DNA of 36,796 bases from Thermoplasmata archaeon (GTDB taxonomy: Archaea; Thermoplasmatota; Thermoplasmata; Thermoplasmatales; Thermoplasmataceae), in assembly GCA_021810575.1 (NCBI GenBank), contig JAJZIN010000009.1, positions 1-36,796 on the forward strand, given 5' to 3'. Made by a program: the position numbers and the translations under genes. The stretch's first letter is position 1, and each line of letters begins with the position of its first letter. The notes beneath the pieces are model-generated. The model made no database searches. It was not told where the DNA came from and worked only from the letters and a program-made list of their open reading frames with translations. This document shows, one piece after another, positions 13,335 to 19,604 of the stretch.

Positions 13335-14624
13335 ATGCTGACATTTGAAAGTAAGGACTTCATTCAACTCAGCCTTTTACTGGTGATAGCATCTTTTTCT
13401 ATCCCTATAGCAAGGAAGGTATCCCTGGTAGAAATTCCCATATTGATCTCACTGGGACTACTTTTTGGACCCGGTCTTGGAGTCATTAACCACAGCTTTG
13501 CAGAGTATATGATTCAGGATTTCGCGGGATTTGGTGTTGGCATACTTGGATTGGTGATCATCCTGTATTACGAGAGCCACAACATAAATTTCAGGGTAAT
13601 AAGGAAGTTCCTGCTTAACATCATATCCCTGAATACGGTTGGTATGGTTGTTACCTCGGTAGTTGCAGGCATATTCTTTTCCCTGCTTACAGGCGCCCCG
13701 TTCCTGATTGGATTCCTTTTTGGAGCAATAATATCTCCAACAGATCCTTCAACACTGATCCCACTGTTCAGGAAAATCAAGATAAAGGATGATTACTCTG
13801 GAACTCTTATAGGGGAGAGCCTTTTCAACGATCCTCTGGCTATTATTCTTGTCACGCTTGCAATATCATTCATCTACTCAGGCTCATCCTACTCAACGCT
13901 TTTCAACAGCGTTACCGGTGCTGTGGGATTGATAGGAGGCATTCCATTGTTCCTGGTGATCCAGATAGCAGTTCCATCGGTATTTGGGGTTATCATGGGT
14001 TTCGGGATTATATATCTCAACAAATACCTGAATTTTGAGAATCTCATCGTTGGCCTGCTTCTTGGTGTGGTTCTTTTTGAACTCACTGTTCTCTATGGCA
14101 TAGGAATCACTCCCTTCCCAGCAATCATTGCAACAGGTGCCATTGTCGGGACATTTACAGACAAGAGCATATTCTGGTCAAGGGAATCAAATTTCCAGGA
14201 AAATCTCTCATTTCTTGCCCAGGGTATAATTTTCATTCTAGTTGGGAGTCTCATAACAATAGGAGATATTACCGGTTACCTGCTGCAGGGTTTCATCCTG
14301 ACGCTTATAGTTATATTTGTTGTAAGACCAATGGCAGTCTTCATATCATTACCTCCGGGAAGATCAAAGAATAAGGGTCCAGCAAAGAGCTGGAGAACAA
14401 AAACTTTCATAGCACTTTCCGGTCCCCGTGGGGTGGTTTCTGTGGTGGAGGGAGCCGTTCCATACTCAATAGGACTGCTGTCCGGTAATGCTCTATTGCT
14501 AAAATGGGGACTTGTTCTTGAAATTGATGTTACTTTCATTGTACTGATATCAATCCTCTTGCAGACAATCTACCTGCCAATAGTAGCAGGGAGATTATTG
14601 CCACAGGATGCCACTCAAACCTGA
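13335..14624 (+). CDS. Na+/H+ antiporter, CPA1/NhaP type
   Basis: 429 residues, very hydrophobic, with about 12-13 predicted membrane helices. Signature pieces of CPA1 antiporters: GAIISPTDPSTLIP (helix 4 region) and GESLFNDPLAI with the cation-binding Asn-Asp pair, then a SGPRGVVSVV helix near residue 360. It exchanges Na+ (or K+) for protons across the cell membrane, relevant to an acidophile that must keep its cytosol near neutral. It starts 2 nt after nadE and its last 10 nt overlap the convergent ATPase gene (14615). Confidence 0.9.
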   Translation: MLTFESKDFIQLSLLLVIASFSIPIARKVSLVEIPILISLGLLFGPGLGVINHSFAEYMIQDFAGFGVGILGLVIILYYESHNINFRVIRKFLLNIISLNTVGMVVTSVVAGIFFSLLTGAPFLIGFLFGAIISPTDPSTLIPLFRKIKIKDDYSGTLIGESLFNDPLAIILVTLAISFIYSGSSYSTLFNSVTGAVGLIGGIPLFLVIQIAVPSVFGVIMGFGIIYLNKYLNFENLIVGLLLGVVLFELTVLYGIGITPFPAIIATGAIVGTFTDKSIFWSRESNFQENLSFLAQGIIFILVGSLITIGDITGYLLQGFILTLIVIFVVRPMAVFISLPPGRSKNKGPAKSWRTKTFIALSGPRGVVSVVEGAVPYSIGLLSGNALLLKWGLVLEIDVTFIVLISILLQTIYLPIVAGRLLPQDATQT

Positions 14625-18030: not shown

Positions 18031-19604
18031 ATACCACTCGCCATCTTCATTGCTGTTTCAGGATCTTTATAATATATATTGATTATCCTTGTAATATTCG
18101 TATAATCCGTTATGTTGTTTTTGACCATTCCATCCAGCAGAGCCCTGCGTCTCTCAAACTCAAAGTTCATTTCTTCCTGGGTCCACTGTTTAGTATCCCG
18201 TATCTCGTTCAGGATCTTGCTGAATCCTGAAAATACCTGTTCATTCTGGTTGAAATCATAGGAAAATACCTTATTATACATTATCTCTCCAGAATCCTGA
18301 TCTGTTCCCACAATTTCGTCAATCTCCATCAACTTTCTCATATTCCTGCTTCCGACCCTTACGAATTTATTGAATATCACAATGTTAAGTGCACCGATAA
18401 GTACTCTTGGAATATTTAGCGGATTTGATTCCAGCCTGTTTACAAGGGTCTCCATGGAGTCCGCGTGAATTGTTGAATATGCAGTGTGCCCCGTTGAAAT
18501 GGCCTGAAATAGGGAATAAGACTCTCTTCCCCTTATTTCCCCAAGCACGATATATGTGGGCCTCTGCCTCATTGCCATCTTTACAAGTTCAAACATGCCT
18601 ATGGGAGGATTCTTTGAATCACCATTGGCAGTGGAATAGATACTTTCCCTTGTTGAAGTTGCCACCCAGTTCTGATGCATTATGTTGATTTCCCTAGTTT
18701 CCTCTATGGAGAAAACCTTTGTATTTGATGGTATGAACATGAGAATTGCATTTATAGTGCTTGTCTTCCCAACTCCAGGAACACCAGCAATGATGGCAGA
18801 CTTCAGATTTTCAACTGCAAACCAGAGATATGTAACAAGTTCAGAGGTTGCCGCACCATACTTTATCAGTTCCACAGGGGTGAATGGTGATTCCCTGAAT
18901 AACCTGAATGTAAACGCAGAACCCTTCGTAGAAATCTCATTGCCGAAAGTCAACTGAATCCTGTGTCCTTGAGGAAAAGTACCATCTATGATAGGTTCAT
19001 TCATGGAAACTTCTTTCCCGCACATCTGTGCCAGTCGGACAACATATGAATCAAGGTCTTTTTCATTATCGAAAACTATGTTCGTCTTCAGGGAGCCATG
19101 TATTTTATGCTCCACATATACAGGAATACCGACTCCATTACAGGAGACATCCTCAACCAAAGGATCCCTTACAACAGGTTCAAGAGGTCCATATCCCTCA
19201 TAGTTTCTCTTAATGAAATACTTGATCTTGTCCACTGTTCTTCTGTTAAGTTTATACTTTCTACCCTTCAGGTATGAGTCTATGACTTTCTCAATCGTTA
19301 GCTGGGATAGATCCTCGGGTAGATTTTTCGAACTTTTAACTATCTGTTCCATGTTCTTTGATATCTTCTTGAGCAGGATTTCCTCATCTGAAGACAGAAC
19401 AGGCTCATTAGCAATATATATGGATTCCATGCTTGTTGGGTTCCATGAAATCTCAACTGTCACGGTCTGTGGTATGATATTGTATTCGTCAAGGATTTCG
19501 TATTTTCCTACCGCTGGAACTTCAGAAATTCTTTCTTCTCTCTTGGTTGGTACATTTCTAACAGGTTTCTTTTCCTTTTTTTTAGTAGGAGAAAATAAAG
19601 GCAT
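18027..19604 (-). CDS. Type II/IV secretion-type ATPase, first copy (GspE/TadA/ArlI family)
   Basis: 525 residues with a complete motor: Walker A GVPGVGKT (274-281), Asp box IEETRE (300-305, Glu where Asp is more usual), Walker B GEIRG (355-359), and the canonical His box GHTAYSTIHA (372-381). The N-terminal domain (about 45-250) precedes the motor and contains the GYGPLEPVVRDPLVEDVSCNG region conserved in archaeal members. It should power assembly of a pilus-like filament or export. It is the first gene of the operon; a TATA-like box is about 23 nt upstream. No pilin or prepilin peptidase is next to it. Confidence 0.9.
   Translation of the reverse strand: MPLFSPTKKKEKKPVRNVPTKREERISEVPAVGKYEILDEYNIIPQTVTVEISWNPTSMESIYIANEPVLSSDEEILLKKISKNMEQIVKSSKNLPEDLSQLTIEKVIDSYLKGRKYKLNRRTVDKIKYFIKRNYEGYGPLEPVVRDPLVEDVSCNGVGIPVYVEHKIHGSLKTNIVFDNEKDLDSYVVRLAQMCGKEVSMNEPIIDGTFPQGHRIQLTFGNEISTKGSAFTFRLFRESPFTPVELIKYGAATSELVTYLWFAVENLKSAIIAGVPGVGKTSTINAILMFIPSNTKVFSIEETREINIMHQNWVATSTRESIYSTANGDSKNPPIGMFELVKMAMRQRPTYIVLGEIRGRESYSLFQAISTGHTAYSTIHADSMETLVNRLESNPLNIPRVLIGALNIVIFNKFVRVGSRNMRKLMEIDEIVGTDQDSGEIMYNKVFSYDFNQNEQVFSGFSKILNEIRDTKQWTQEEMNFEFERRRALLDGMVKNNITDYTNITRIINIYYKDPETAMKMASGI

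What the first reader, a model, noticed from the sequence alone, without database searches (positions are those of the whole stretch)
14615..19604. One operon with two different pilus/secretion ATPases and two T2SSF platform proteins
The four genes overlap or touch (4-nt overlaps at 18027 and 17056, zero gap at 16204/16205), so they are surely one unit. Each ATPase has its own full motor, and the two share a basic M-x-LFS-x-TKKK start, suggesting old duplication. Known archaeal pilus and archaellum loci normally have a single assembly ATPase, and no dedicated retraction ATPase is established in archaea. A two-motor machine (extension plus retraction, or a mixed hexamer) would be new. No pilin or prepilin peptidase is adjacent.
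Basis: partly seen in the sequence, partly recalled or inferred. Interest (0 to 1): 0.72.

Follow-up and report, generated by a model that had tools for sequence, protein, structure and literature searches.

The report
Two-ATPase archaeal pilus motor operon
This is an already described archaeal pilus operon that carries two motor ATPases instead of one, and comparison with Thermoplasma suggests that the two do not pull in opposite directions but interlock in one ring, each supplying part of a shared active site.

Summary
In detail: E1 (18027-19604), Fa (17056-18030), Fb (16205-17059) and E2 (14615-16204), minus strand, are two complete PilT/VirB11-type ATPases and two T2SSF proteins. Fa and Fb match the two halves of one platform, so there is one split platform. 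The layout is published: both ATPases are 98.3% identical to the CdiP pilus operon of Cuniculiplasma divulgatum (CSP5_0712-0715; PMC5155288, PMC12448462), where the second ATPase is called enigmatic. New here: (1) of 117 held genomes of the order, 83 have both ATPases, 26 neither, 8 are incomplete; no uncut locus was seen with only one. (2) In five Thermoplasma operons E1 has lost key Walker A, Asp-box, Walker B and His-box residues (the Walker A lysine stays) but keeps the inter-subunit arginine finger (FlaI R326, CpaF R347); E2 keeps those residues and has tyrosine at the finger. Such complementary loss fits a mixed E1/E2 ring better than separate extension and retraction homohexamers. Both genes are under purifying selection. 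(3) Paired ATPases arose at least twice in the phylum. In the window both ATPases are complete, so a mixed ring there is inferred by orthology. I found no heteromeric motor of this superfamily in print (open-access searches only).

The parts
18027..19604 (-). E1: first PilT/VirB11-like ATPase (525 aa), orthologue of one of the two CdiP ATPases; complete motifs (GVPGVGKTS, IEETREI, RQRPTYIVLGEIRG, STIHADS); finger R346, Walker B E356
   Evidence: 98.3% identical to the G051 copy
17056..18030 (-). Fa: T2SSF protein (324 aa), matches the N-terminal half of an ArlJ/UpsF-type platform
   Evidence: NF004704 4-242/555; UpsF 22-248/484
16205..17059 (-). Fb: T2SSF protein (284 aa), matches the C-terminal half of the same platform
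   Evidence: NF004704 271-545/555; UpsF 279-437/484
14615..16204 (-). E2: second PilT/VirB11-like ATPase (529 aa), orthologue of the other CdiP ATPase; complete motifs (GGTATGKTT, IEDTREI, RQRPSYVIVGEVRG, GTFHADD); finger R345 aligns with FlaI R326, Walker B E355 with FlaI E336
   Evidence: 98.3% identical to the G051 copy

Best explanation
The operon encodes the cytoplasmic motor and inner-membrane platform of one type IV pilus (the CdiP pilus of Cuniculiplasma). Fa and Fb together make one platform. E1 and E2 most likely assemble in alternation into one mixed hexamer under it, probably three of each facing three Fa-Fb heterodimers. [quoted passage not shown] In Thermoplasma this has gone furthest: E2 keeps the catalytic residues and E1 serves mainly as finger donor, so three of six sites would be live. 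In the window both paralogues still look catalytic, so all six sites may be live but of two kinds. Shown: gene order, motif inventories, orthology, co-retention, complementary loss in Thermoplasma, purifying selection. Inferred: the mixed ring itself, its 3:3 stoichiometry, the Fa-Fb pairing, and the extension of the Thermoplasma logic to the window.
For: Finger identity: the first Arg of RQRP in window E2 (R345) aligns with FlaI R326 and Walker B E355 with FlaI E336 (residues counted from the alignment; the CpaF construct aligns the same way, R347/E357 after its offset of 79). These arginines act across the subunit interface (passages of PMC12019362; PMC11300603). Of 43 columns conserved in at least 97% of 209 other ATPases, the five Thermoplasma pairs lose 23 only in E1, 7 only in E2, keep 7 in both, lose 2 in both; 4 are mixed (Fisher p 0.005 on the 39 unmixed). 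The 23 include Walker A G and T, Asp-box E, Walker B G and E, and His-box H; the 7 include both RQRP arginines. Of 72 other pairs, 66 deviate at none of the 43 columns and 6 at one or two. The degenerate E1 is under purifying selection (dN/dS 0.086 in the pair with dS under 1, E2 0.056). The T. volcanium E1 model keeps the GspE/FlaI fold (pLDDT 81.8, pTM 0.59; Foldseek E 1.8e-32 to 2oap, TM 0.64). Co-retention: 83 both, 26 neither, 8 incomplete of 117, also where E1 is not next to Fa-Fb-E2 (G004-G007). CpaG-CpaH is proposed as a heterodimer, each subunit contacting one CpaF monomer in an AlphaFold3 model (PMC12019362).
Against: No complex was observed or modelled; no multimer prediction was available. 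In the window both ATPases keep every motif, so two homohexamers are possible there. The Walker A lysine column (and the first P-loop Gly) is kept in all five Thermoplasma E1s, so some nucleotide binding is not excluded. In four of the five Thermoplasma E2s an Arg sits one position after the finger site (YRNP or YRSP) and might substitute; T. volcanium has no Arg there, but a Lys just before the site. P0133, an E2-like relative of unknown context, keeps the finger Arg. In T. volcanium the losses overlap more (7 columns, expected 9.4, p 0.09), and the five loci are related, so the tests are not independent. PilT and PilU, a comparable pair, act as homohexamers (PMC6821130). Split platforms with a single ATPase exist (for example L198; G163 has one T2SSE match at 1e-12), so a split platform does not require two ATPases.
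Confidence: 0.6

Rival explanations
1. Two separate homohexameric motors share one platform, one for extension and the other for retraction, as PilB and PilT do in bacteria.
For: Both ATPases are complete in the window; bacterial T4aP use two motors; PilT and PilU form homohexamers (PMC6821130).
Against: Neither reaches the PilT family model. C. divulgatum cells did not twitch (PMC12448462). No uncut locus with only one of the two was seen in 117 genomes. Thermoplasma E1 has broken versions of all four nucleotide-site motifs and its E2 lacks the canonical finger, so neither would be a normal homohexameric motor. Sulfolobus Aap pili retract without a PilT homologue (PMC11178785).
Confidence: 0.15
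2. Two functional homohexamers that alternate on the platform for different pilins, growth states or force regimes, as suggested for duplicated ATPase/TadC loci in other Euryarchaeota.
For: Makarova et al. [quoted passage not shown] G051 has four Pilin_N matches over the cut-off, all away from the operon.
Against: The two ATPases lie in one overlapping operon, and the motor genes showed no significant growth-phase change in C. divulgatum (PMC12448462); Thermoplasma shows complementary loss; single loss was not seen.
Confidence: 0.15
3. One paralogue (E1) is mainly a non-catalytic regulator or stator of an E2 ring, without sharing active sites.
For: Thermoplasma E1 has broken nucleotide-site motifs but stays under purifying selection; some E1 copies carry long basic N-terminal extensions.
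Against: E1 keeps the finger arginines that E2 has lost, which a mere regulator would not need; outside Thermoplasma E1 is catalytically complete in the rows examined.
Confidence: 0.1

Closest known systems
CdiP pilus machinery of Cuniculiplasma divulgatum (CdiPE1, CdiPE2, CdiPFa, CdiPFb; CSP5_0712-0715)
   Same: Same four genes in the same order; E1 and E2 98.3% identical between the window and G051, whose contig length, 1,938,699, equals the S5 genome length in PMC5155288.
   Different: Nothing in layout. The passages seen assign no mechanism to the second ATPase; here a mixed ring is proposed from comparison.
Aap pilus (AapE, AapF) of Sulfolobus acidocaldarius
   Same: FlaI/GspE2-type ATPase plus T2SSF platform making an adhesive type IV pilus.
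   Different: One ATPase and an unsplit platform; AapX present (PMC12448462).
Bacterial Tad pilus (CpaF, CpaG, CpaH)
   Same: FlaI-like ATPase with a split two-gene platform.
   Different: A single bifunctional ATPase that forms a homohexamer (PMC12019362, PMC11300603).
PilB/PilT/PilU motors of bacterial T4aP
   Same: More than one hexameric ATPase acting on one platform.
   Different: Dedicated extension and retraction families; PilT and PilU act as homohexamers (PMC6821130).
F1/V1 rotary ATPase rings (recalled)
   Same: Alternating catalytic and non-catalytic homologous subunits in which the non-catalytic one gives the arginine finger.
   Different: Different protein family and work; an analogy only.

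Membership tests
PilT/VirB11-like ATPases, archaeal FlaI/GspE2 branch | T2SSE domain with Walker A, Asp box, Walker B, His box and finger Arg | tested here: met
   for both window ATPases; finger mapped for E2 and for E1 by the alignment
CdiP pilus machinery (Cuniculiplasma) | Gene order E1-Fa-Fb-E2 and near-identical proteins | tested here: met
   L132 (G051): same order, E1 98.3% and E2 98.3% identical
CdiP pilus machinery (Cuniculiplasma) | Pilins encoded far away (about 500 kb) | tested here: inconclusive
   In G051 two adjacent Pilin_N matches lie at 1.214-1.215 Mb and the operon at 0.676-0.681 Mb; no whole genome is held for the window itself
Archaellum motor (ArlI/ArlJ) | FlaI/ArlI equivalog score over the cut-off | tested here: not met
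   381 and 369 bits against a cut-off of 550; four ArlI-like rows form a separate clade (SH-aLRT 100); the flanking genes are an Na/H exchanger and an ABC transporter
PilT/PilU retraction ATPases | TIGR01420 score over the cut-off | tested here: not met
   44 and 36 bits against a cut-off of 319.1
Tad pilus | TadA family ATPase model over the cut-off (TIGR03819) | tested here: not met
   137 and 153 bits against a cut-off of 373
Heteromeric ring ATPase | Complementary loss of own-site and neighbour-site residues between paralogues | tested here: met
   Only in the five Thermoplasma loci; in the window pair no such loss is seen
Heteromeric ring ATPase | Physical mixed hexamer | not testable with these tools
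   No multimer prediction or biochemistry available

The most novel reading that the evidence does not exclude
[quoted passage not shown] In Thermoplasma it has become half catalytic and half arginine-finger donor, and paired ATPases evolved more than once in the phylum.
Probability: 0.5. Interest if true: 0.85.

Novelty: new variant of a known kind. Interest (0 to 1): 0.7.

Why it matters
Whether motor ATPases of type IV filaments can form mixed rings has been proposed (PMC6711533), but PilT and PilU work as homohexamers (PMC6821130). Thermoplasma offers a natural separation of functions, a degenerate subunit that keeps the finger beside a live subunit without it. That turns the 'enigmatic' second ATPase of Cuniculiplasma into a question that two purified proteins could answer. 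It would also give a ring with three fixed live sites, useful for deciding how many sites must fire and in what order.

Tried and rejected
Two platform proteins, one per ATPase: rejected, because Fa and Fb match the two halves of one platform.

Archaellum locus: rejected.

The shared M-x-LFS-x-TKKK start as a trace of duplication: rejected; among the 14 loci printed only a basic start is general.

A single origin of all two-ATPase loci: rejected for the E-E-Fa-Fb type (T1 held with E1: p-AU 7e-43). For group III the test is ambiguous (p 0.025 with E2; p 0.109 with E1). That E1 and E2 of the order are sisters is not rejected (p 0.216). A further test (T2 with E2) did not finish and was left.

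The first FastTree did not join E1 of groups I and II; the C20 model tree did. I rely on the latter.

Paralogue-specific columns in the order gave only three positions, too few for an argument.

Rows dropped: ORFs under 400 aa and loci L129, L130, L131 and L140 were left out of the 219-row tree; 84 of the 219 rows went into the model tree, and none of the Thermoplasma or L073 rows was among them.

Full report
What is there. Four minus-strand genes, E1 18027-19604, Fa 17056-18030, Fb 16205-17059 and E2 14615-16204, overlap by 4 nt, overlap by 4 nt and abut. E1 and E2 are T2SSE ATPases, Fa and Fb T2SSF proteins. Against archaellar and Ups platform models Fa covers the N-terminal half and Fb the C-terminal half, so the operon encodes one split platform and two ATPases. 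E1 and E2 are 31.6% identical. A regular-expression scan found no class III signal peptide in the window (0 hits).

What it is. A genome scan found three relatives of E1. In the genomes behind them (G001-G003) the only T2SSE matches over the cut-off are the two in this operon. The closest copy, in G051, is 98.3% identical for E1 and for E2. G051's contig is 1,938,699 bases long, the length given for C. divulgatum S5 in Table 1 of PMC5155288 (passages seen). That paper lists the cluster as CSP5_0712-0715 with pilins elsewhere and says that the arrangement of the clusters resembles Aciduliprofundum. PMC12448462 (passages seen) names the genes CdiPE1, CdiPE2, CdiPFa and CdiPFb, calls the finding of two ATPases unique, reports no twitching, and leaves the second ATPase 'enigmatic'. 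Makarova et al. (PMC4858521, passages) note two distinct ATPases in one Aciduliprofundum boonei locus. The layout is therefore not new. In G051 two adjacent Pilin_N matches lie at 1.214 and 1.215 Mb, about 0.53 Mb from the operon, in keeping with the paper's ~500 kb.

How widespread. All 117 held genomes of the order were searched with the T2SSE family (its match list is cut) and 112 of them with window E1 (61, 24 and 27). My reading of those tables: 83 genomes have both E1- and E2-type ATPases, some of them cut or split by contig ends. 26 have neither: 20 have no T2SSE match over the cut-off and 6 (G014, G016, G083, G085, G108, G110) have only ArlI-like or other T2SSE genes. 8 are incomplete: G022, G026, G027, G052, G088, G094 and G111 hold a piece at a contig end, and G098 has both genes frame-broken. 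No uncut locus with one but not the other was seen; completeness of these genomes is not told. In G004-G007 E1 lies away from Fa-Fb-E2 and is still present, so linkage alone does not explain the pairing. The gene order E-Fa-Fb-E was found in 73 of 144 loci examined.

Elsewhere in the phylum. From 145 genomes sampled (match list cut) I fetched 40 loci, chosen by hand. Three have E-Fa-Fb-E, eight E-E-Fa-Fb, two more paired ATPases cut by contig ends, nineteen a single ATPase followed by Fa-Fb, and eight something else or are partial. In a tree of 84 ATPases, 24 E1 rows of the order form one clade (SH-aLRT 100), 24 E2 rows another (95), and the tandem pairs T1/T2 together with one single-ATPase row a separate clade (99). 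Holding T1 with E1 is rejected (p-AU 7e-43), so paired ATPases arose at least twice. Group III (L187, L189, L210) may be a further origin, but the tests are ambiguous (p 0.025, 0.109).

The decisive comparison. In all five, E1 has lost Walker A G and T, the Asp-box Glu, Walker B Gly and Glu and the His-box His, but keeps the Walker A Lys column and RQRP. E2 keeps all of those and has Tyr in place of the first Arg of RQRP. Aligned with solved structures, that Arg is FlaI R326, equivalent to CpaF R347, the finger that reaches the ATP of the neighbouring subunit and is described as conserved in all type IV filament ATPases (PMC12019362; PMC11300603; passages only). Without choosing motifs: of 43 columns conserved in at least 97% of 209 other ATPases, 23 are lost only in E1, 7 only in E2, 7 kept in both, 2 lost in both and 4 mixed; Fisher p 0.005 on the 39 unmixed columns. 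Per locus the overlap of losses is below expectation, with p 0.002 to 0.09, the weakest being T. volcanium; the five loci are related. Among 72 other pairs, 66 deviate nowhere in these columns and 6 at one or two.

Is the degenerate E1 real and used? Its dN/dS is 0.086 in the one pair with dS under 1 (L127/L128), against 0.056 for E2; more distant pairs are saturated. Its predicted model (pLDDT 81.8, pTM 0.59) matches archaeal GspE and FlaI best (Foldseek E 1.8e-32, TM 0.64); the E2 model has pLDDT 87.8 and matches FlaI and GspE (1.8e-35). At the ends the two also differ: E1 is short at the C-terminus and E2 at the N-terminus.

Interpretation. If E1 and E2 formed separate rings in Thermoplasma, one would lack most of its nucleotide site and the other the canonical finger. 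If they alternate, each E2 site meets an E1 finger and the ring works. That is my best reading. It fits the co-retention across the order and a split platform whose halves, in the Tad AlphaFold3 model of PMC12019362, each contact one ATPase monomer. For the window the step is by orthology only: both ATPases are complete there and may both be catalytic.

Limits. The Walker A Lys of the degenerate E1 is kept, so some nucleotide binding is possible. Four of the five Thermoplasma E2s have an Arg one residue after the finger site, and T. volcanium a Lys one residue before it. P0133, an E2-like protein of unknown context, keeps the finger Arg. No complex was modelled. PilT and PilU form homohexamers (PMC6821130), while PMC6711533 argues that mixed rings may form. 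That I found no heteromeric motor of this superfamily in print rests on nine searches of an open-access library, of which only asked for mixed rings by word.

Noticed in passing
L174 3651-6236 (G127:C40): One 862-aa ORF holds two complete, different T2SSE ATPase cores in tandem, each with Walker A and RMRP; no Fa/Fb match was found on its 8.9 kb contig. A covalent pair would be a natural test of mixed rings.
   Followed up: partly
P0008, P0012, L096 (G053, G054, G057, G058): E1 carries a basic, low-complexity N-terminal extension of about 210-315 aa; in G003 it is Fa that carries a long charged N-terminal extension (L003 11476-13449).
   Followed up: partly
L074-L080 (G004-G007): E1 lies away from Fa-Fb-E2 but is still present.
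   Followed up: partly
L073 (G007:C66): A second, divergent E-Fa-Fb-E operon in a genome that also has the standard set, with both ATPases keeping the motifs.
   Followed up: no
P0133: E2-like protein, 38% identical to T. volcanium E2, that keeps the finger Arg; its E1 partner is unknown and could show in which order the losses occurred.
   Followed up: no
L130 (G098): E1, the platform genes and E2 are frame-broken together, either by assembly errors or by decay.
   Followed up: no
window 30670-32586 -: 638-aa protein with an ice-binding-like (PF11999) domain (E 2.4e-69), unexpected to me in an acidophile lineage.
   Followed up: no
window 24653-26440 +: Alpha-amylase family protein (PF00128) directly downstream of an 857-aa ORF (22078-24651) that I did not identify.
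   Followed up: no
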